Part shown: piece after piece, positions 11,267 to 26,107 of the stretch
Layout of the letters: each line of letters opens with the position of its first letter
Position numbering within the stretch: the stretch's first letter is position 1
Origin: Promethearchaeota archaeon
GTDB lineage: Archaea; Asgardarchaeota; Lokiarchaeia; Sigynarchaeales; SOKP01
Assembly (NCBI GenBank): GCA_030605085.1
Contig: JAUWBH010000045.1
Coordinates: 1 to 35,098, forward strand
Length of the DNA stretch: 35,098 nucleotides
Reading direction: 5' to 3'
Program-made: the position numbers and the translations under genes
Notes under the pieces: model-generated
Seen by the model: the letters and a program-made list of their open reading frames with translations, nothing else
Told to the model about the DNA's origin: nothing
The model's database searches: none

Positions 11267-12328
11267 TTACACGCTAAAATTATTTTTAATTTTTTTTTTT
11301 ACCAATTTTTCAAACCCTATTGCGTTAGAAAATATTGGATCTTTAACTTTAATAATTCTTTCGATATCAGATTCGGCAATTAAATTATTTTTTAAGATTA
11401 ACATCTCAATTTCATTCCAAAATAAACCCAATGCTTCACCGGCTAAAATATAATATTCAATTTCTGCTTCTAATGGCAAGTATTTTACCACATCAATTAT
11501 GTTATCAACAATTTCAGCTGAAATTTGACGGATAAAATGTTCTTTTACCTTACTAATATCGTATGTTTTGCCAGAGATCTGAACTTTGTCCTTATTACTT
11601 CTAATACTCTGTAAGATTGAATTAGGATTTATTATGGTTCCTGCTTGTTGTTGTAAGGCGAGAGCAATTTTATTAGATAAAATAAATAGCGATGCGTTTA
11701 TTAAATTTCGAGAGGCGTTCCTAATTAATTTACCATCGTAAATGGTTAAAATCTCTGTTGTTAGATCTAAAGAAATCACAACTGCGTCTACAGCCATATT
11801 TTCTTCAATGCTTGAAACTACATTGTAATATGTTCCATAAGATTCAGGCATTATCAAAACTTGCCTAATATTTAGTTTTTTATTGATTATTTCTTTCGTT
11901 GCTTCATTTTTAATTCTTATCTCGAATTCACCTTTTAACTTAGCACTTAATTCTTTCATCTTTTCAACATTTGTAGAAATTGGAACACCTATTCCAAGAA
12001 CGATGTCTTCTTCGTCATTTTTTAAAATTATTGGTAAGACCGCTTTAATTAACAAGAAAATGTCGTCAATTTTTTTAAGATTTCCTTGGTCCAAAATAAA
12101 ATGTTTGATTTCGCTCTGAGTCCGCGCCAATTCACCAATGTAGTATTCTTTATCGTCTTCTATAAGTATAAGATTACTTTCCCAAGTCTTATCTACCGTT
12201 AAATCCCCCCAACCTACAGGATCACTAGAACCTATTATGTTAGGAATCAATATTTTTATAGATTCGCTCGAAAACTTAATCTCTCCACCAATATCTATTC
12301 CAATACCTAAAATGATCCAATCACCCAT
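11267..12328 (-). CDS. Actin-fold paralogue with an eroded nucleotide site
   Basis: A 353-residue protein clearly paralogous to the actin-like ATPase encoded divergently at 12499. Shared landmarks include the N-terminal LIPNIIGSSDP segment, YYIGELARTQSE, GIGVPIST, MPESYGTYYN and the C-terminal DPIFSNAIGFE. The ATP-binding motifs have decayed. Phosphate-1 is DIGGEIK (one residue shorter, no threonine/serine) where the paralogue has DLGTSTIK. Phosphate-2 is DLTTEIL near residue 188, lacking the glycines of DIGHGSTD. The adenosine motif is AGEAL instead of CGGGA. I infer a pseudo-ATPase that may cap, nucleate or copolymerise with the active form. It leads an operon with the coiled-coil gene. Confidence 0.75.
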   Translation of the reverse strand: MGDWIILGIGIDIGGEIKFSSESIKILIPNIIGSSDPVGWGDLTVDKTWESNLILIEDDKEYYIGELARTQSEIKHFILDQGNLKKIDDIFLLIKAVLPIILKNDEEDIVLGIGVPISTNVEKMKELSAKLKGEFEIRIKNEATKEIINKKLNIRQVLIMPESYGTYYNVVSSIEENMAVDAVVISLDLTTEILTIYDGKLIRNASRNLINASLFILSNKIALALQQQAGTIINPNSILQSIRSNKDKVQISGKTYDISKVKEHFIRQISAEIVDNIIDVVKYLPLEAEIEYYILAGEALGLFWNEIEMLILKNNLIAESDIERIIKVKDPIFSNAIGFEKLVKKKIKNNFSV

Positions 12329-12454
12329 TTTGTATGCAATTTTAATCGAACAGTTAATAGTTGTGAATATAATGTTTAAACAATCAGCAAATTAACGAGA
12401 GAATAATATTAAAAATAAGTTATTCAATTATAAATATAAATTAGAAAATAAAAC

Positions 12455-12464
12455 TATTTATAAT
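12455..12464 (+). promoter_or_regulatory. Putative TATA element for the actin-like gene
   Basis: TATTTATAAT lies about 35 bases upstream of the ATG at 12499, inside the 170-base space shared with the divergent pseudo-ATPase operon. Position and composition suit an archaeal TATA box, but the surroundings are AT-rich, so the call is weak. Confidence 0.25.
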
Positions 12465-12498
12465 AACAAGAAATCTAAATTTTTTAGGTGAGAATATC

Positions 12499-13524
12499 AT
12501 GGTATTATATGTAGGTTGCGACCTTGGCACAAGTACAATAAAAATCTCGTGTGAGAATACTAAATTTTTAATACCTTCTTTAATCGGTGAGCCAAATCCT
12601 GGCTGGTCTGGAGCTTCATTTGACAAAAGTCTTGAGAAGAATTTAGTATTAATTGACGGAAGAGACTCTTGGTATGTTGGAGAATTAGCTCGAATGCAAT
12701 CGGAAGTAAAACGTACTCTCGCAGCTGATGGTCAAATGAAATCAGCTGAAGAAACTTTTTTGGCTCTAAAAGCAGCATTAGGGTTATTAATTGATATAAG
12801 TGATAAAGAGGTTATATTAGCTACAGGTGTACCAGTCGCCACAAGCCAAGAAGTGATGAAAAATCTCAGTAGGATGTTAAAAGGGAATATCGAAATAAAC
12901 GTAAAAAACGACGCCACAGGCGATACTAAACGAATTACTGTAAATATTCAAAAGTGTTTAGTATTGCCAGAGCCTTATGGTACTTACTACTCGACTTTAA
13001 AAGAAAAGGGAGAAGAAGAGGCTGTTGACACTGTAATAATTGATATAGGACATGGAAGTACCGATATTTTAACGATGTACCAAGGACGTCCCATGCGTAC
13101 GGCCAGTGGAAGTATGAGAGAAGCGACAGATACGCTCACAAACCGGATGGCAAGCGCTCTTCAGGAAAAAACAAATCATATCGTTAAACCATTTGATTTA
13201 ATGACAATAATTAGACAGCAAAAAGATAATGTAATGATCGGAGGTCAGACTTATTCTATTAAGAGCATCAAGGATTTTTACGCAAAACAGATTGCCAAAG
13301 TTATGATTGACGAAGTCATGAGACTTATATCAACATTACCACCGGACGCATTCGTAGAATATTATATAATTTGTGGTGGGGGTGCTTATACATTCGGGGA
13401 TTTCATTAAAGAGGCTATTATCGATGGTAAATTAGTCTCATCTCCAGATGCAGTTATTATTCCAGAAGATCCTGTCTTAAGCAATGCAAAGGGTTTCGAA
13501 CTTATTGCCCAATCACAGAAATAA
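12499..13524 (+). CDS. Actin-like ATPase (archaeal ParM / Ta0583-type)
   Basis: A 341-residue actin-superfamily protein expected to bind ATP and form filaments. Phosphate-1 DLGTSTIK is at residues 8-15, phosphate-2 DIGHGSTDIL at 182-191 and the adenosine motif CGGGAY at 292-297. The length and lack of long insertions fit the archaeal Ta0583/ParM group rather than eukaryote-like Lokiactin. A strong AGGTGAG at 12485-12491 sits 7 bases before the ATG. Upstream and divergent is its degenerate paralogue; downstream follow two helical proteins that are likely partners. Possible roles are DNA segregation, cell shape or membrane organisation; the sequence does not choose among them. Confidence 0.88.
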   Translation: MVLYVGCDLGTSTIKISCENTKFLIPSLIGEPNPGWSGASFDKSLEKNLVLIDGRDSWYVGELARMQSEVKRTLAADGQMKSAEETFLALKAALGLLIDISDKEVILATGVPVATSQEVMKNLSRMLKGNIEINVKNDATGDTKRITVNIQKCLVLPEPYGTYYSTLKEKGEEEAVDTVIIDIGHGSTDILTMYQGRPMRTASGSMREATDTLTNRMASALQEKTNHIVKPFDLMTIIRQQKDNVMIGGQTYSIKSIKDFYAKQIAKVMIDEVMRLISTLPPDAFVEYYIICGGGAYTFGDFIKEAIIDGKLVSSPDAVIIPEDPVLSNAKGFELIAQSQK

Positions 13525-16592: not shown

Positions 16593-16595
16593 AAA

Positions 16596-16676
16596 ATGGT
16601 AGAAAAGAAAATAGAAACTCATTATGACATTGTTTGCCCATTCTGTTCCTTAATAATTAAAGAATTCTTTAAGTAA
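16596..16676 (+). pseudogene. fwdB: Orphaned 5' fragment of fwdB (first 17 codons)
   Basis: The ATG at 16596 has a well-placed AAAGAGG and begins MVEKKIETHYDIVCPFC, matching MVEKKIKTHYDVVCPFC of the fwdB at 22525. Over the first 50 bases the two copies differ at 8 positions, mostly silent, so this is not a fresh target duplication. Homology ends after the TGT cysteine codon (16644-16646), and the frame stops at 16676. The lost sequence resumes only in the downstream copy. The break is 4-5 bases short of where intron 1 begins in the downstream gene. Confidence 0.85.
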
Positions 16677-17079
16677 AAGGGGTTCTTGTTTTACAATAAA
16701 ATTTAAAGCTTCACTATCTTTGATCTTAATCTCATAACCATATTTTCGAGCTAAAGCTTCACCAATCTTTCTTAAATCATCTGTAGCATTTTTAGCAATA
16801 TAGATGATATAACCTTCTGAATTATAATCTTCGAGTTCGGGCTTAACTTTCAAAAATTCCTTTTCTAAGTCGCTTGGTCCAAATTTTTTAACTCTTTTAG
16901 CTTGTATAATCCATATTTTACCGTTTTTTATTTTTATTGCATATATATCTTTACCTTTTTCACTACCTGAAGCCCCACGCCATTGAACATTTTTCCATTT
17001 ATCTCCTGTTTTTATTATCCAAAATATTAATCTTTCAAATTTTCGGCACAGAGAGACGTCTCAATATCTTAGGAAACAT
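16650..17079 (-). pseudogene. Mrr-like PD-(D/E)xK nuclease, frameshifted
   Basis: On the minus strand a frame open from about 17055 to the stop at 16650 encodes FERLIFWIIKTGDKW, GASGSEKGKDIYAI and KIWIIQAKRVKKF: the E, G-x-D and Q-x-K residues of the Mrr/restriction-like fold, with the later KFGPSDL also usual. No start codon lies in this frame. A plausible start, ATG at 17077-17079, is in another frame and joins it if one A of the AAAA run near 17039-17042 is removed. I read it as a nuclease gene with a one-base frameshift. It could be the homing or restriction function of the insertion. Its 3' end contains a 16-bp palindrome (16657-16672). Confidence 0.6.
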
Positions 17080-17086
17080 TGGTGGT
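17074..17086. repeat. 13-bp direct repeat, left copy
   Basis: AAACATTGGTGGT here recurs exactly at 22298-22310, on either side of the giant gene. It overlaps the likely start codon of the nuclease gene. It may be a target-site duplication or chance. Confidence 0.4.
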
Positions 17087-17098
17087 TTAATTTCTTAC

Positions 17099-17278
17099 AT
17101 GTTATCGTTGAATCCAGATTCTATGTACGGATTAGATTTTGATAATCATAATTTGGATTATACGACGCTCACTAGCGAGCTATATTCTTATATCGATCGC
17201 GATTATTATTGCTATAAATCAGATAACGATGACCCTCTCTGCATTCTATACAAATATAATACTTCAGTACAAAATTAA
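17099..17278 (+). CDS. Small reading frame upstream of the giant gene, 59 residues
   Basis: It begins ATG TTA TCG and encodes MLSLNPDSMYGLDFDNHNLD and then an aromatic-rich stretch with YSYIDRDYYCYKSDNDD. Base composition is less AT-rich than the spacers around, and the frame is open further upstream, so it may be a remnant of a longer gene. The giant gene starts 13 bases after its stop. No family recognised. Confidence 0.3.
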   Translation: MLSLNPDSMYGLDFDNHNLDYTTLTSELYSYIDRDYYCYKSDNDDPLCILYKYNTSVQN

Positions 17279-17291
17279 ATTAATTCATAGG

Positions 17292-20200
17292 ATGCAAGTA
17301 AAAAAGATCGAAAGAATAGTTGGAAAAGGACAAAATACTTTCTTGGAAAACTTGGATCATCAAAAACCAGCTTTAGGAAGTGAAGATATGACGAAACTAT
17401 CAGATTTATTTGGAGATATGTCGAAAGAACATTCTCCAACTGTTCAAGTTTTCCCTTATATAAATCCTAATCCTATGATTAAATCTCAATCAGTTGACCA
17501 GCAAGTTCACCGAAAATTACGAAATGAACGTTCAGATTTCACTATAGAGAAGTCTGCTAAATTATCAAGCATAATTCTTACAAAACAGTTATATTTTGAA
17601 TATAAAAAAGTTCTTGAATACAAATTAAATAAAATCAAAGAGATTGAAAAATCCAGAGATTTAAGGGAGAATACCGAGAAAAAAATTCAGGATAGTTTAT
17701 ATGAGGAGACAATTCAATTTTCCGCTGCTAATCTACCTCAGGTTGCTGAAATGAAAGATCCCTATTTTATGCTTATAGGAGCTTATCATTCAGATCCCTT
17801 GCAATTACTTAATTTAAATCCACTTTTGACTATTGAGGAAGCTAAATATTGGTTGAAATTCCATTATAGAATCTCCTACGACATTGATTTAATTTACGAT
17901 GGAAATCTAATAGAAGTAGGTGCTAAGTTTGGAACTCTTGATATAAAGAGCGATACCACATTAAAACAAGTTTTAGATATACTAGGGTATTCAACTCCAG
18001 AACAGATTTTAGTGGTTCCAAGTAAAGGTAAATTTAATGTAGATCGAGTGTCGGAAATCTTGGAAAAATATGCTGGAGTTGATGAGCAACTTAGAGAGAA
18101 AATTAGAACGTTTACAACAACTTTTTGGAAGAGCATAAGGCAAAATCCTAATAACTTCTTAAAAATCTTTGATCGTAAAGAAATAGTTTATTTTATAAAA
18201 GAAATTGACATAATTATTGATACCATAGTTAATGAATTTAATCCAAGTGATTTTAAAGCTTTTGAAAAAACTCTTATTGAACTTTGGTTAAAATCCGCCC
18301 AAAAATTAGAACCAAGTAAAAAACTTTCAGAAGAAGAGAATCAACAAATTATTGAACAAGCTACAAAATATAGCAAATATGTGCGCAAAATTTACGAAAA
18401 TTCAATTGCTTTATTTCAAAGAGGTTCTTCAAATAAACACCCTAATGATGTTATTAAACTCGCTTTATTGAAAGGAATTGTGCAGAGTTTATGTGATTCG
18501 CCAAACCTTGATGGTAAAATTCCTTATACCGTTGAAATAAACGAAATTTTCGATCGATTAAAAGAAAACTTAGAATTTTTCAAGAAGACTAAATACTTTA
18601 TTTCCAGAGAATTTCTCACTTTATCAATGTTATTATGTCTCACAAGTACAACTTCCTTTGATCCCCGCAAATTTGGTATTGAAAGAAAATTTGATTCAGG
18701 AGGTGAATTAGAAGTATTTTCATTGATTAATATTGTGCCAAAACAACATTTATGGTTTGAGAAAAACGGATATAAACTAGTGAAATTTGAAGAAACTAAG
18801 TTTCATGATGCGGATGTAGAGAAAAGTATCAAAAAAATTAAATTTGGTCCAGGTCAGTATATAGCTCCCAAGGATTCCGCTAATTTTGATGTTAATAGAT
18901 GGCTTTATCGTGATGAATATGGCAACTGGTTTATTGTATATCTTCCTAATAAAAATTCGATGAATTTCTATAAATATGTTGTGGATGGTATCGTTGAAAA
19001 TACCTTTAGAGCGGTTTATGAATCAAATAATGAAATTTTACAAGCAAAATCTTTAGAACCAAGTAAAACAACCACAGAAGTCTTACTTATTGGTCCCTTC
19101 CTAAGCCAAGACGAAAGATATAATTCTCTTACTTCTTTTGGTGAAAATTTTCTATTTTTATTATCTAAAGGCGTTGACCTTGGAAAAGGTTGTTGGCAAG
19201 AAAGACGACCAAGAAGTTCTGATTTGAAATTATCAATAGCAGATGGGCATAAATATGAGATGATAAAACAAATAAATGAAATCTTAGGTTATAAACAACA
19301 TTCAGATTTAAAAACAATAGTAGAATATAAAAATGAATTTAATAATAAATTCTCAAATTCAAATGATAAATTTATCAAATCACTATTCCAACAAAGTAAA
19401 AAATATAAATCACGCATTAAATTTGAAGAATATTGGGGAATAAAATATAATAATGAAGGTAAAAAGCAATTTGGAGCAATTTTAGAAGCATCAATTCGAA
19501 TGTATCTTGATAAAGGAGTGAAAGCTCGTGTTAGTGATTTTGAAAAGTTAGGTATTAGTACTCAAAATATTAAAAAATCTGATGATGGAAAATATATTGA
19601 GGAATCCACAATCTTAGGATTTAAGATGGATAATAATGGGAATCCCTCTTATCGTCTTTTTAATCTAGACCAACTCTCACAAGGATTACCTATGGAAAGC
19701 GAGTGGCAAATAGGATATCCAAAACTTCGTTTTCTTAATAAGATCACGGGCAAAAAAACTTTTGACATAATACCTCAAGTTATTATTACTCATAGAAATG
19801 GTAATTATCTTTTAGGAAGATATAACGATTTTACAATACATCATGAGAGTAAAATAATTCAATTAAAGGATAATGGAGAAAAATGGTTTATGGATCAAAA
19901 TGTTTTAGACAAAAACATTCTAGAAGATTTTCGAGGAGTAAAATATGGTTTAAAGACAATTTTTTACGAATTAGATAGATATGGAAATACATATACTATT
20001 TTAGGTCATGAAATTGATTTAACATCAATGAAATTTAAATTTGGAATTAAAATGGAATATTATAAAGATAGATTTAAGCATGAAAGTTTTAAAAAAAGAA
20101 AAAATTCTCAAGTAAATTTACATGAAACTCCTTCATTTTTAAGGCATTATCCAATCGCAGAAAACATTAAATCAGAAATAATGAAATTAAAAGATTCTAT

Positions 20201-22151
20201 TTTAACTCCAATTTTTAAATTAGCCCAAATACAGATTGAACATAATCCAAAAACAAAAATAACTACAAGAACTTCATCAATATTACCATTAGAAGATAAA
20301 ATATTAAGGTTTTTAAATAGTTTTATCGATGAAAATGGAGTATTCCAGAATGGTCTTGGATATGATGAATTAAGATATCTCTTCAAATACTTAGTCAAAG
20401 ACAAAGCAGAAATCCTATGTTATAACAGATTTTATCTTAAAAAACAAGATAATGAACACTTAATTTTTAATATCCATCAATCTGATAAGGAATGGTTTAA
20501 ATCAATGTTAAGTATTATAATTAATTTCGAACCTTTAGAAAATATACAGAATCCTGCAATAAAAGCATTAAATGAGAGAATTTTAGAATATAAATTGCGA
20601 TTTGCTAATAGATATCTTTCAGATGGTCCAAACTTAAATGAATATGAATATGGTACAATTAAATTTGAAGATGAATCTCTTGTTAAAGAATTAAAGGACG
20701 CGGTAATAGATATTTTTGGTAGGTATACTTATATCAAAATGGTTACTGGTGCATTATATTTTGATGGTAAAGATATTCAATTTATTACTCTTGCATGGAA
20801 TAATTTAAGAGAAAATGCTTTTAAGCATAATAATCGATTATTTCTACAACATTATAAATCAACTAAAGGAGGGGTTCCTCCAGGGGGTGCAACCCATGGG
20901 GGCTCTTTTGGATATATTTTAGATACAATAATATTTGGAATTACATGGAGATTGCAGGTTATTCGAGAATATGGTGGTAAAACGGAAGATTTATTCTTAG
21001 ATTGTCCACATGTACCGACTGATGCATGGAATCCAGCATACATAACTGAAAAAGAAGTCTTAAACATTTTTGGCAGAAGTAAAATAATCGAATATACAGA
21101 TGAATTATCCAATTGGTTATTAAAACAGAGTGGTCGTAGACCTCGTTTTACATCTAAGATAAAACTAAGTAAATCTGATAGTAACAGAATGTTACATGAA
21201 TATTTGTTAAACAAATTTAAAGCTAAAGTTAATGATTTTACAAATGATAAATCAAAACGAGACATTTATTTATATTTAATTGAGCAAGATTTGTATCATT
21301 TGTTTTCTCTTTACAAAAGTGGTGAAAGAGATGCAGATGTTCAACAAATAAAGAAATTCTTATCGGGGACAATAAAGAAATTCAATTTAAATCTTAAAGG
21401 TCCAACGATATATATGCCACCAGAACTTAGGACAATTGAATTAAATCAAGGTGACTATAATTATTTTATAGAAAATAATTTAGATAAAGTATTTCTTAAT
21501 AATCTCCATATAAGACCAGGATCAAGAGCAGGATATAAGACATTAGACAGAATTATGAATCTAGAAGATTCAATAACGAATTTTGGAAAGATGATTAAAG
21601 ATTTAGCTTTAAGATTTGGAAATCCTTCCGGCGGTAATCATAAAAAATTATATATAATACCTACTAAGATATATGATGATGGATTAGGACAACATGATTA
21701 TTCAAAAAACAAATACATAGATACCGCCTCTGATAGAATTTCCATCGACGGTAAGATATGGAAATGCTGGATTCTTGATGGTAGCGAAAATGGAAAATAT
21801 TTAAAAAATTTCAATAAAAAATATGTCCATGTAATCAGAGGTTTCCTTGAAGGTCAATTAACGCTCTTCATTTTTGCTATTGACGAGCAAAGCGGAGAAT
21901 ATATACCAGTTTGCGCTTTAAACGCAATACAAGGGGCTTTAAATCCAAATCAAGTCCATTTTAGCTCTCATAAAAGAGTTAAAACATTTCCTAAGATCGA
22001 CTCGTTTGATCAAGTATTATACGATCAAAATAAAAATGAAAACATTTATGTTTTAACAGATTCGTTCAAAAAAAGTTATTATAATTTAATTACTCTTTCA
22101 GATATTAAAGATTATAATCAATTCTCTTTTATCAGAGAGTATTATTATTAA
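17292..22151 (+). CDS. Giant uncharacterised protein, 1,619 residues
   Basis: A single uninterrupted frame. Although it is open from 17139, the first stretch is a run of isoleucines typical of AT-rich non-coding sequence, so I chose ATG 17292 (MQVKKIERIVGKGQ). The protein appears soluble and rich in lysine, asparagine, aromatics and isoleucine, with no signal peptide or clear membrane span. I find no Walker, DDE, tyrosine-recombinase, HNH or other catalytic signature that I trust. Notable spots are WQERRPRSSDLKLS near residue 640, a glycine-rich GGVPPGGATHGGSFGY near 1200 and GNPSGGNHKKLY near 1450. It lies between the two copies of the fwdB 5' end and is likely cargo or machinery of an insertion. 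Function unknown. Confidence 0.8.
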   Translation: MQVKKIERIVGKGQNTFLENLDHQKPALGSEDMTKLSDLFGDMSKEHSPTVQVFPYINPNPMIKSQSVDQQVHRKLRNERSDFTIEKSAKLSSIILTKQLYFEYKKVLEYKLNKIKEIEKSRDLRENTEKKIQDSLYEETIQFSAANLPQVAEMKDPYFMLIGAYHSDPLQLLNLNPLLTIEEAKYWLKFHYRISYDIDLIYDGNLIEVGAKFGTLDIKSDTTLKQVLDILGYSTPEQILVVPSKGKFNVDRVSEILEKYAGVDEQLREKIRTFTTTFWKSIRQNPNNFLKIFDRKEIVYFIKEIDIIIDTIVNEFNPSDFKAFEKTLIELWLKSAQKLEPSKKLSEEENQQIIEQATKYSKYVRKIYENSIALFQRGSSNKHPNDVIKLALLKGIVQSLCDSPNLDGKIPYTVEINEIFDRLKENLEFFKKTKYFISREFLTLSMLLCLTSTTSFDPRKFGIERKFDSGGELEVFSLINIVPKQHLWFEKNGYKLVKFEETKFHDADVEKSIKKIKFGPGQYIAPKDSANFDVNRWLYRDEYGNWFIVYLPNKNSMNFYKYVVDGIVENTFRAVYESNNEILQAKSLEPSKTTTEVLLIGPFLSQDERYNSLTSFGENFLFLLSKGVDLGKGCWQERRPRSSDLKLSIADGHKYEMIKQINEILGYKQHSDLKTIVEYKNEFNNKFSNSNDKFIKSLFQQSKKYKSRIKFEEYWGIKYNNEGKKQFGAILEASIRMYLDKGVKARVSDFEKLGISTQNIKKSDDGKYIEESTILGFKMDNNGNPSYRLFNLDQLSQGLPMESEWQIGYPKLRFLNKITGKKTFDIIPQVIITHRNGNYLLGRYNDFTIHHESKIIQLKDNGEKWFMDQNVLDKNILEDFRGVKYGLKTIFYELDRYGNTYTILGHEIDLTSMKFKFGIKMEYYKDRFKHESFKKRKNSQVNLHETPSFLRHYPIAENIKSEIMKLKDSILTPIFKLAQIQIEHNPKTKITTRTSSILPLEDKILRFLNSFIDENGVFQNGLGYDELRYLFKYLVKDKAEILCYNRFYLKKQDNEHLIFNIHQSDKEWFKSMLSIIINFEPLENIQNPAIKALNERILEYKLRFANRYLSDGPNLNEYEYGTIKFEDESLVKELKDAVIDIFGRYTYIKMVTGALYFDGKDIQFITLAWNNLRENAFKHNNRLFLQHYKSTKGGVPPGGATHGGSFGYILDTIIFGITWRLQVIREYGGKTEDLFLDCPHVPTDAWNPAYITEKEVLNIFGRSKIIEYTDELSNWLLKQSGRRPRFTSKIKLSKSDSNRMLHEYLLNKFKAKVNDFTNDKSKRDIYLYLIEQDLYHLFSLYKSGERDADVQQIKKFLSGTIKKFNLNLKGPTIYMPPELRTIELNQGDYNYFIENNLDKVFLNNLHIRPGSRAGYKTLDRIMNLEDSITNFGKMIKDLALRFGNPSGGNHKKLYIIPTKIYDDGLGQHDYSKNKYIDTASDRISIDGKIWKCWILDGSENGKYLKNFNKKYVHVIRGFLEGQLTLFIFAIDEQSGEYIPVCALNAIQGALNPNQVHFSSHKRVKTFPKIDSFDQVLYDQNKNENIYVLTDSFKKSYYNLITLSDIKDYNQFSFIREYYY

Positions 22152-22524
22152 AAATTATTTTAGACTGTCAATTTGACTAAAAAGATACTTTCTAATATCT
22201 ATTATTCCCTTAGTCCTAACATTTGTATTCGATCGAGGGAACCCTTGGTTAAAATAAAAAAGAAAACACTCTAATTCATTTTACAGTTTAATTTTAAAAA
22301 CATTGGTGGTCAAACTACTTAGTTTTACCCTATCTTATATTATCGATACAATCAAGTAAAATTTTTAATATAGTAGTTATTAAATGTTAGGGGGAAATTT
22401 TTTATAAAACTCTACTTTCTCCTTACTAAGCTTATAAATTTAAGATTCAAATTACCAATATTGGTTATAATCTATTATCTAATGTAAAATTTAAATTAAA
22501 CAAATCAAATTATCTGTGAAAAAA
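22152..22524. other. Non-coding spacer before fwdB
   Basis: 373 bases with no supported gene on either strand. It holds the second copy of the 13-bp repeat and AT-rich stretches; AATTTAAATTA near 22489 is a possible TATA element roughly 30 bases before the fwdB ATG. No strong ribosome binding site precedes that ATG, unlike the orphan copy at 16596. Confidence 0.5.
22298..22310. repeat. 13-bp direct repeat, right copy
   Basis: Exact match of 17074-17086. Together they bracket a 5.2-kb block containing only the small frame and the giant gene. No matching terminal inverted repeats are visible just inside the pair. Confidence 0.4.
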
Positions 22525-23908
22525 ATGGTTGAAAAGAAAATAAAAACACATTACGATGTCGTCTGCCCATTCTGCGGAAAGGAATTCTTCGAATAAGAAA
22601 TTCCCCGCAACATTATGCGACGACCTTGAAGTTGATGTGGCTGATAATTTAGTAGTTGAAGTAAGAAACGCGTGCCAAATAGGTACAAAGAAATACTTTG
22701 CATCCAATCCAGGCGAACATAGATACGAAAAACCCTTGATTAGAGAGAATGGTTCTTTTAAGGAAGTATCCTGGGATATAGCTCTTGATAAAGCTGCGGA
22801 TCTTTTAGTTAAAGCTAAAAGACCTTTACTTTACGGATTTTCAAGTACGGAATGCGAAGCACAGAGCAAAGGTGTGGAATTAGCAGAGATAGTTGGTGGA
22901 ATTTTAGACAATACTGCGTCTGTATGCCATGGTCCCACGATTCTTGCAGAAAGGAGACTTTTTTAGAAAATCTCCCTGTATCAAGATGTGGGCGTGCCAA
23001 CATCTACTTTGGGAGAATACAAAAATAGAGCAGATTTAGTAATATTCTGGGGATGCAATCCAGTTCACGCTCATCCAAGACATCTCAGTAGGTATTCCGA
23101 ATTTGTGAGAGGTTATTTTAGAAAGGATGGCCGAAATGATAGGACTATTGTAGTTATAGATCCTCGTAATACACATACCGCTCAAATTGCAGATTTATTC
23201 GTTCAAGTAAAACCAAACGAGGATTATGAATTATTGAACGCAATGAGGGCTTTGCTTAGGGGTGTTGAATTAGAAGACGAAGAAATTTCTGGAGTACCAA
23301 TGGATATGATTAAAGAATTAGCGGATACAGTAAAATCCTGTAATTTTGGCGTAATCTTTTTTGGGATGGGATTAACTCAATCTCTATCACATCATCGAAA
23401 TATAGACGCAGCAATCTGTTTAACAAGAGAATTGAACGATCATACAAAATTCTTAATAACTCCCATGCGAGGGCATTATAATGTCACGGGAGCAAACCAA
23501 GTGTTTACGTGGAACACGGGTTATCCCTATTCAATTGACTTTTCAAGAGGATATCCTAGATATAACCCGGGAGAATTCTCTTCAGTAGAGGTACTTTTAA
23601 AAGACCAAATCGATGTTTCGTTAATTGTTGCTTCTGATCCAGCAAGCAATTTTCCCGCGGCTGCGGTAAGGAATTTGTTTAAACATCCCTTGATAGTAAT
23701 AGAACCTCACGAAACTCCTACTTCTGCAAATGCAGATATAGTTTTTCCTGCTGCTTACGCGGGAATTGAGTGTGAGGGCACTGCATATCGTATGGACAGC
23801 GTTCCTCTAAGATTAAGGAAAGTCAAAGAAGCTCCTGATAATGTGCTAACCGATAGAGAAATATTAAAAAGATTAATAGAAATAGTAAAAGAAAAAAAGG
23901 GGAAATAA
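22525..23908 (+). CDS. fwdB: Formylmethanofuran dehydrogenase catalytic subunit B, split by two mini-introns
   Basis: The catalytic tungsten/molybdopterin subunit. Read directly, it breaks into three pieces. Joining 22525-22579, 22611-22951 and 22982-23908 gives one 440-residue protein of normal family length. Landmarks: the cluster motif CPFC-GTLC (C14, C17, C21), STECEAQSKGVELAE, SVCHGP with C124 as the likely metal ligand, WGCNPVHAHPRH, MRGHYNVTGANQVF and EGTAYRMDSVP. Intron 1 falls inside the cluster motif (codon 19, after its first base). Intron 2 falls between codons 132 and 133, nine codons after C124. No other damage is seen in over 1,300 coding bases, which argues against a dead gene. 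Unspliced translation would stop after 23 codons. fwdC follows 4 bases later. Confidence 0.85.
22580..22610 (+). other. Putative archaeal bulge-helix-bulge intron 1 of fwdB (31 nt)
   Basis: Exon GCGG (22574-22577) pairs with CCGC (22605-22608) as the 4-bp central helix. AAA (22578-22580) and AAC (22609-22611) form the two 3-nt bulges. GGAATT pairs with AATTCC inside the intron. Cutting after the second base of each bulge removes 22580-22610 and gives TGC GGA ACA TTA TGC, restoring CGTLC. The intron contains the in-frame TAA at 22594. The outer exon helix is weak: one pair, two mismatches, then CAT/ATG. Confidence 0.75.
22952..22981 (+). other. Putative archaeal bulge-helix-bulge intron 2 of fwdB (30 nt)
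   Basis: Exon GCAG (22946-22949) pairs with CTGT (22976-22979), one G-U pair. Bulges are AAA (22950-22952) and ATC (22980-22982). The intron helix is GGAGA/TCTCC with an inner TTTT/AAAA. The outer exon helix is TCTT (22942-22945) with AAGA (22983-22986). Cutting after the second bulge base joins GAA to CAA and reads ILAEQDVG. The TAG at 22964 is removed. Confidence 0.8.

Positions 23909-25618: not shown

Positions 25619-26107
<489 letters not shown>

What the first reader, a model, noticed from the sequence alone, without database searches (positions are those of the whole stretch)
22580..22610. fwdB carries a 31-nt insert that folds as a canonical tRNA-type (bulge-helix-bulge) intron
Seen: an insert with an in-frame TAA interrupts the CPFC-GTLC cluster motif. 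Removing it restores the frame and the motif exactly. The fold has a 4-bp helix (GCGG/CCGC) between two 3-nt bulges (AAA, AAC) and an internal GGAATT/AATTCC stem. Established: archaeal splicing endonuclease cuts in such bulges, and a few archaeal mRNAs (for example cbf5) have such introns. Inference: this is an mRNA intron in a methanofuran-pathway enzyme. I know of none described in fwdB.
Basis: partly seen in the sequence, partly recalled or inferred. Interest (0 to 1): 0.93.

Follow-up and report, generated by a model that had tools for sequence, protein, structure and literature searches.

The report
Tiny tRNA-style introns in archaeal mRNAs
In a Lokiarchaeon the gene for a carbon-fixation enzyme is broken by two inserts of about 30 bases that fold like transfer-RNA introns and are likely cut out of the messenger RNA by the tRNA-splicing enzymes; inserts of the same form break four other genes in related species, so mRNA splicing in archaea would be much commoner than the one gene family long known to show it.

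Summary
Confirmed and extended. Joining the exons gives 440 aa that align without a gap to a relative's 440-aa FwdB (87.5%). Six of 69 genomes of the class with an FwdB orthologue (some partial) carry 29-31-nt inserts, at three positions; close relatives lack them. Homology-placed inserts of the same form turned up in cdhC, cdhD, rtcB and rpoB: 25 introns in five genes, 29-36 nt. Exon and intron match in 95 of 100 central-helix pairs, against 44.8 when partners are swapped (0 of 100,000 swaps reach it). Synonymous codons strengthen exon-exon pairing at 14 of 25 introns (p<0.05) against 1 of 26 control sites. Relatives encode EndA and, in 6 of 7, RtcB. Likely mechanism: excision by EndA, sealing by RtcB; no transcript was seen. 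The motif alone is not diagnostic. A 2020 paper (passages, PMC7714728) calls cbf5 the only such mRNA intron then reported; ten literature searches found none in Asgard.

The parts
22525..23908 (+). fwdB, formylmethanofuran dehydrogenase subunit B, as three exons 22525-22579, 22611-22951, 22982-23908 (440 aa when joined)
   Evidence: Join gives 440 aa, gapless 87.5% match to the 440-aa FwdB of L001; exon 3 hits TIGR03129 at 434 bits
22580..22610 (+). intron 1, 31 nt, phase 1 (inside the Thr codon of CPFCG-TLC)
22574..22577 (+). intron 1 central helix, exon strand GCGG
22578..22580 (+). intron 1, 5' bulge AAA, predicted cut AA^A
   Evidence: cut rule from a passage of PMC2738675
22605..22608 (+). 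intron 1 central helix, intron strand CCGC
22609..22611 (+). intron 1, 3' bulge AAC, predicted cut AA^C
22547..22566 (+). 5' exon side of the outer exon-exon helix around intron 1
   Evidence: fold; synonymous-codon test p 0.001 and 0.0017
22617..22639 (+). 3' exon side of the outer exon-exon helix around intron 1
22946..22949 (+). intron 2 central helix, exon strand GCAG
22950..22952 (+). intron 2, 5' bulge AAA
22976..22979 (+). intron 2 central helix, intron strand CTGT (one G-U pair)
22980..22982 (+). intron 2, 3' bulge ATC

Best explanation
The 31-nt insert at 22580-22610 and a second 30-nt insert at 22952-22981 interrupt fwdB, each has at its borders the pairing of a bulge-helix-bulge motif, and both are likely introns that the tRNA-splicing endonuclease (EndA) would excise from the fwdB mRNA and the ligase RtcB would seal. 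Shown from sequence: position, pairing, restored protein, absence in close relatives, the same form in fwdB, cdhC, cdhD, rtcB and rpoB of related genomes, and exon codons biased to hold the fold at 14 of 25 sites. Inferred: a cut after the second base of each bulge (the rule given for cbf5 mRNA), a two-subunit EndA with broadened specificity as the enzyme, RtcB as the ligase, and recurrent recent gain or loss of the introns.
For: Joined exons give 440 aa, gapless against the 440-aa FwdB of L001 (440 aa also in P0002-P0010). Relatives: 6 of 69 class genomes with an FwdB orthologue (some partial) carry 29-31-nt inserts at three sites; near-identical orthologues lack them (L026 against L021, L010 against L011; tree, at least 6 changes forced). 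Wider: 25 introns in 5 genes, each with at least 3 of 4 central pairs and 20 of 25 with 4 of 4. Matched exon/intron pairing 95 of 100 against 44.8 swapped, 0 of 100,000; 95 against 66.2 for shuffled introns allowed five registers, highest of 4,000 shuffles 78. Synonymous-codon test: p<0.05 in 14 of 25, against 1 of 26 control sites in intact orthologues; at fwdB site 1, 6 of 6, against 1 of 35 and 1 of 37 rows without an intron at that position. Machinery in relatives: PF01974 in 7 of 7, with two copies in 4, and RtcB in 6 of 7; one copy close to A. pernix EndA with the catalytic His kept and Lys 44 of the crenarchaeal loop matched, the other lacking the His.
Against: No RNA evidence of any kind. 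The BHB motif alone is low-information: a blind scan of 0.99 Mb found about as many ORF-joining BHBs as mirror-image controls (464 against 438 at -4 kcal/mol). In the eight fwdB cases the exact BHB lies 0 to 1.7 kcal/mol above the free minimum, so the free fold often differs in detail. 5 of 25 introns have only 3 of 4 central pairs, and some have weak inner stems. 11 of 25 miss p<0.05 in the synonymous test, intron 2 of the window among them (p 0.128, 0.16). No genome is held for the window, so its own EndA and RtcB were not checked; RtcB was not found in G006, the genome of the closest relative. Rows at one site in related species are not independent.
Confidence: 0.93

Rival explanations
1. 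Decay or assembly error: the inserts are chance indels and fwdB is a pseudogene or a mis-assembly.
For: Other kinds of break do occur in these MAGs: a deletion in fwdB of G030, internal deletions in rtcB and cdhC of G012, a stop codon in rpoB of G031.
Against: Apart from the two inserts the reading frame is intact over 440 codons. Inserts of like size and fold recur at the same positions in independent assemblies. The 25 fit one structural register. Exon codons are biased around 14 of 25.
Confidence: 0.03
2. Translational bypassing: the ribosome hops over each hairpin, as in phage T4 gene 60 or yeast mitochondrial byp elements (recalled), and no RNA is cut.
For: Inserts of about 30 nt forming hairpins inside coding sequence look like byp elements (recalled).
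Against: A hop needs matching take-off and landing codons (recalled), hence a direct repeat of about 3 nt at the junction; the window inserts have repeats of 2 and 0 nt and only 4 of 25 reach 3 nt. It does not predict the exon-intron helix between two 3-nt bulges in one register.
Confidence: 0.02
3. Read-through for insert 2: it is a 30-nt in-frame insertion whose TAG is decoded (for example as pyrrolysine), adding 10 residues.
For: Insert 2 is 30 nt with a single in-frame TAG.
Against: The insert at the same position in L012 is 31 nt and shifts the frame; insert 1 (31 nt) cannot be read through; 14 of 25 introns are not multiples of three, and in 25 of 25 the unspliced frame stops within the intron or the next 20 codons.
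Confidence: 0.01

Closest known systems
cbf5 pre-mRNA intron of Desulfurococcales and Sulfolobales (Crenarchaeota)
   [quoted passage not shown]).
   Different: That is one gene in one archaeal group, with spliced cDNA shown. Here five other genes in the class of Lokiarchaeota genomes, 29-36 nt, several positions per gene, two introns in one gene copy, mostly full 4-bp central helices, and exon codons biased around 14 of 25. No cDNA here. No interruption was listed for the TruB/Cbf5 N domain in the 80 class genomes with a match (of 83).
Archaeal tRNA (BHB) introns
   Same: Same anatomy: exon 5' strand pairs with the intron 3' end, 3-nt bulges at both ends, an inner stem within the intron (tRNA anatomy recalled; strict and relaxed BHB in passages of PMC6379350).
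   Different: Located in mRNA; the outer helix is made of coding exon rather than a tRNA stem.
Abundant tRNA introns of Asgard Atabeyarchaeia and Freyarchaeia
   Same: An Asgard setting with a heavy intron load: 92-95% of tRNA genes (PMC11291895, passages read).
   Different: The passages report introns in tRNA genes only.
HVO_1309 of Haloferax volcanii
   Same: An mRNA cut by the splicing endonuclease at BHB sites (PMC7714728, passages read).
   Different: The BHB sites lie in the 5' UTR, not inside the coding sequence.

Membership tests
Archaeal BHB pre-mRNA introns | Insert interrupts a conserved protein gene; removal restores frame and motif | tested here: met
   440-aa gapless product in the window; 25 of 25 in five genes by alignment or motif
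Archaeal BHB pre-mRNA introns | 4-bp central helix between two 3-nt bulges, splice sites between bulge bases 2 and 3 | tested here: met
   Both window introns 4 of 4 pairs; 20 of 25 overall 4 of 4, the other 5 have 3 of 4. Free folds of the fwdB cases differ in detail by up to 1.7 kcal/mol
Archaeal BHB pre-mRNA introns | Presence/absence polymorphism at a fixed position in orthologues | tested here: met
   fwdB 6 of 69, cdhC 5 of 64, cdhD 5 of 65, rtcB 3 of 75, rpoB 3 of 77 class genomes (my counts of listed rows; denominators include partial copies)
Archaeal BHB pre-mRNA introns | EndA and RtcB encoded in the organism | tested here: inconclusive
   Present in related genomes (EndA 7 of 7, RtcB 6 of 7); no genome held for the window
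Archaeal BHB pre-mRNA introns | Spliced mRNA detected; hairpin cut by EndA | not testable with these tools
   No RNA data or assay
Translational bypassing elements | Matching take-off and landing codons | tested here: not met
   Junction repeats 2 and 0 nt in the window; at least 3 nt in 4 of 25
Group I or group II self-splicing introns | Catalytic RNA core of hundreds of nucleotides (recalled) | tested here: not met
   Inserts are 29-36 nt; no Rfam match at gathering score in the window
(alpha-beta)2 EndA with crenarchaeal-type loop | Catalytic subunit with catalytic His and loop lysine, plus an inactive structural subunit, assembled as a heterotetramer | tested here: inconclusive
   Sequence features met in relatives: L071 (G002) aligns to A. 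pernix 3p1z/3ajv with the His kept and Lys 44 matched; G004 encodes both a like copy (L070, by eye) and L075, which lacks the His column of 1a79. Assembly not tested

The most novel reading that the evidence does not exclude
tRNA-type splicing of mRNA is a genome-wide, evolving layer of gene expression in Lokiarchaeia: tens to perhaps a hundred 29-36-nt introns per genome, gained and lost on short time scales, with coding exons evolving under RNA-folding constraint to serve them, and with the ligase gene rtcB itself carrying such introns in some species, so that splicing capacity could feed back on itself.
Probability: 0.6. Interest if true: 0.96.

Novelty: new variant of a known kind. Interest (0 to 1): 0.91.

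Why it matters
Introns in archaeal protein-coding genes were taken to be almost absent; passages of a 2020 paper name cbf5 as the only additional BHB intron reported (PMC7714728), and a passage of a 2023 hypothesis paper on the nucleus finds no eukaryotic-like introns in archaeal protein-coding RNAs (PMC10732040). A recurrent class of mRNA introns in Asgard archaea, the archaea nearest eukaryotes (recalled), bears on how a cell lives with interrupted genes before a spliceosome. It also means that gene callers can truncate conserved genes in these genomes, as they did here (306 aa instead of 440), so proteins counted as fragmentary may be intact. And it offers natural presence/absence pairs for asking how BHB introns arise. 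It should be testable with metatranscriptomes that contain these archaea.

Tried and rejected
Blind search for the motif: scanning the window, then 0.99 Mb of related sequence, for BHBs that join two open frames gave no clear excess over a mirror-image control; the motif is too weak to find introns without homology, and I dropped that route without checking its single candidates.

A covariance model was considered and not built: MAFFT placed the gaps badly and I judged that 36 degenerate positions would be swamped in about 290 Mb.

A homology scan of open frames of at least 100 aa over 85 sequences recovered the fwdB inserts of L008, L010, L012, L026, L065 and window intron 2; it missed window intron 1 (short first exon) and also listed weak single hits, several on antisense frames, which I did not pursue (for example L078 985-1006).

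Interruptions examined and not counted as introns: fwdB of G030 (deletion with frameshift); rtcB and cdhC of G012 (deletions); a single TAA codon in rpoB of G031; a stop upstream of the start in the FwdB paralogue of G051 and in cdhC of G064 (G064 also has an intron further on); contig ends in G033, G045, G053 and G071 for fwdB, and an unresolved break near a contig end in G063. Partial rtcB rows of G017, G032 and G065 were not fetched; those of G061 and G071 were and stop at contig ends. The 385-residue CdhD-family paralogue has no stop or split in its listed rows, but the partial rows of G012 and G039 were fetched (L186, L187) and not resolved.

Rows left out of counts: L162 duplicates L012; fwdB counts omit the 31-38% paralogue; L004 lacks site 1 and L027 both sites. 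Denominators include partial copies.

Literature: ten full-text searches found no report of BHB introns in Asgard protein-coding genes; the library holds no bioRxiv and few subscription papers, so absence from print is not proven.

Full report
Observation. The insert is as described. fwdB starts at 22525; after 18 codons plus one base the frame runs into 31 nt (22580-22610) with an in-frame TAA. GCGG (22574-22577) pairs with CCGC (22605-22608), flanked by AAA and AAC. RNAfold finds the helix and the 5' bulge without prompting, but its best structure adds a pair using the first base of the 3' bulge; the exact BHB is 1.5 kcal/mol less stable.

A second insert. The open frame breaks again at a TAG at 22964-22966. 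Comparison with relatives shows a 30-nt insert at 22952-22981 between LAE and QDVGVP, with GCAG pairing CTGT, bulges AAA and ATC, and a 5-bp inner stem. Removing both gives 440 aa, gapless at 87.5% identity over all 440 residues of FwdB in L001; the nine nearest other public proteins are also 440 aa (P0002-P0010). The predicted protein of the window's own contig begins after intron 2 (306 aa, P0001), so a gene caller lost the first third.

Relatives. A genome-contig scan gave 67 loci, 30 of them titled Lokiarchaeota or Lokiarchaeia (L001-L028, L064, L065); L004 does not reach site 1 and L027 reaches neither. Five of the 30 carry inserts in fwdB: L026 and L065 (29 nt) at the position of intron 1, L008 and L010 (29 nt) 7 nt upstream, L012 (31 nt) at the position of intron 2. 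A search of the 83 genomes held of the class of G003, the genome of L012 (the tool does not name the class; I call it Lokiarchaeia), added G049 (29 nt, position of intron 1). That is 6 of 69 genomes with an FwdB orthologue of at least 48% identity, some of them partial, plus the window. On a tree of the part of FwdB downstream of intron 2 the carriers are scattered among non-carriers and at least six changes are forced (L065 is only 24% filled); L026 is nearly identical to intron-free L021, and L010 to intron-free L011. Gain and loss cannot be told apart here.

Other genes. Family and protein searches of the same class, on genes picked without knowledge of introns, showed frame-breaking inserts in rtcB, cdhD, cdhC and rpoB (none in its PF00562 domain). 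No stop or split was listed in methenyl-H4MPT cyclohydrolase (75 genomes with a match; two are partial), in the Cbf5/TruB N domain (80 with a match) or in the listed rows of the 385-residue CdhD-family paralogue (two partial copies unresolved). In these four genes each insert was placed by alignment to an intact orthologue, and its fold was examined afterwards. The 25 introns are: fwdB window (two), L026, L065, L152, L008, L010, L012; cdhC L192, L193, L194, L195, L196 (two); cdhD L178, L179, L180, L181, L182; rtcB L172, L173, L174; rpoB L201, L202, L203. They lie in motifs such as CPFCG|TLC (FwdB), LPD|AHQGYG and GVGY|DINCG (RtcB), DPT|CAT|LGYG (CdhD, two positions) and AMA|NQTGGG (CdhC). G005 carries introns in three of the five genes; G002, G003, G033 and G045 in two each.

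One structural register. In 25 of 25 the homology-fixed junction has at least 3 of 4 central pairs, in 20 all four. The exon strand differs from site to site (13 gene/exon-strand combinations) and the intron tail changes with it: 95 of 100 pairs matched, 44.8 expected when introns are swapped among exons, 0 of 100,000 swaps as good; one representative per combination gives 50 of 52 against 22.6. Where the alignment leaves several equal registers I let the fold choose, which favours pairing; giving shuffled introns five registers still yields 66.2 on average and at most 78 in 4,000. Sliding one splice site by one base drops the count to 33-41; sliding both along the helix leaves 76-78. Lengths are 29-36 nt, median 30; 21 of 25 introns begin with A. 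Against this stands the blind scan: without homology, BHB-like joins are about as common as mirror images.

Exons under RNA constraint. With the protein held constant and synonymous codons redrawn from pooled usage, the two flanks of the six fwdB site-1 introns pair far better than expected (-14.1 to -21.3 against null means of -6.5 to -9.1 kcal/mol, p 0.001-0.008). Rows without an intron at that position reach 0.05 in 1 of 35 (site 1a) and 1 of 37 (site 1b); these rows include carriers of the neighbouring site and some duplicates of one genome. At site 2 the two carriers give p 0.128 and 0.167 against 0 of 37. Over all 25 introns 14 reach 0.05, against 1 of 26 control sites in intact orthologues of the other four genes (Fisher combination 4.5e-17, which treats related rows as independent). 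This is the outer helix of a BHB substrate, built here from coding sequence.

Machinery. EndA (PF01974) is in 7 of 7 relatives tested, two copies in four of them, and RtcB in 6 of 7. The stronger EndA copy (L071, G002) aligns over residues 20-200 of 200 with the catalytic subunit of Aeropyrum pernix EndA (3p1z; organism recalled); the His that is Ala in 3ajv is kept and the lysine at position 44 of that chain is matched. A review passage names K44 as the conserved residue of the crenarchaea-specific loop and ties such loops to more BHB and relaxed-BHB introns (PMC6379350). The weaker copy (L075, G004) lacks the His column of 1a79 (that this His is catalytic is recalled). This suggests an (alpha-beta)2 enzyme; [quoted passage not shown]

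Mechanism. Shown: sequences, pairing, distribution, codon bias. Inferred: EndA cuts after the second base of each bulge, RtcB joins the exons, and FwdB is translated from the spliced message. Bypassing is disfavoured by the missing codon repeats; read-through cannot explain frame-shifting inserts; decay is disfavoured by the intact remaining frame and the recurrence of one form.

Scope. Listed rows for other classes of the phylum showed no comparable insert in fwdB or cdhC. Both lists are capped; one fwdB row starts late (G187, residue 82) and five cdhC rows outside the class carry a stop, none of which I inspected; the spans of those five are not longer than the query stretch they cover. A rough density is 23 introns (the 25 less the window's two) over about 0.78 Mb of coding sequence in seven genes, counting partial copies as full, or about one per 34 kb; extrapolated, that would be tens to a hundred per genome. 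The seven genes are not a random sample and this figure is inference only.

Known or new. The kind, a BHB intron in archaeal mRNA, is known from cbf5. The host lineage, the five genes, the number, two introns in one gene copy and the codon bias are not described in anything I found, within a library that lacks preprints and many journals.

Noticed in passing
window 16593-22524: About 5.9 kb separates fwdD from fwdB, holding a 1670-aa ORF (17139-22151); in relatives such as L001 fwdB follows fwdD directly. The ORF has no Pfam, NCBIfam or PHROGs match at the thresholds used: possibly an inserted element of unknown kind.
   Followed up: partly
L172, L173, L174 (rtcB of G081, G031, G063): The gene for the RNA ligase that would seal these introns carries such introns itself, at LPD|AHQGYG and GVGY|DINCG, which invites a test of self-regulation.
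   Followed up: partly
G008:C112 between 17568 and 19030: rpoB of G008 has an insertion of about 1.46 kb near residue 470 within one 1620-aa open frame, as an intein would.
   Followed up: no
L176 and L208 (G012): rtcB and cdhC of G012 both have large internal deletions relative to relatives, unlike introns.
   Followed up: no
L153 1380-1560 (G030 fwdB): A frame-shifting deletion around residues 258-266 of fwdB: a true lesion or an assembly error.
   Followed up: no
window 25619-26107: A 162-aa ORF with a long run of aspartates followed by a hydrophobic stretch (by eye).
   Followed up: no
window 11267-13524: Two similar actin-like ORFs (353 and 341 aa; name by eye only) stand head to head.
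   Followed up: no
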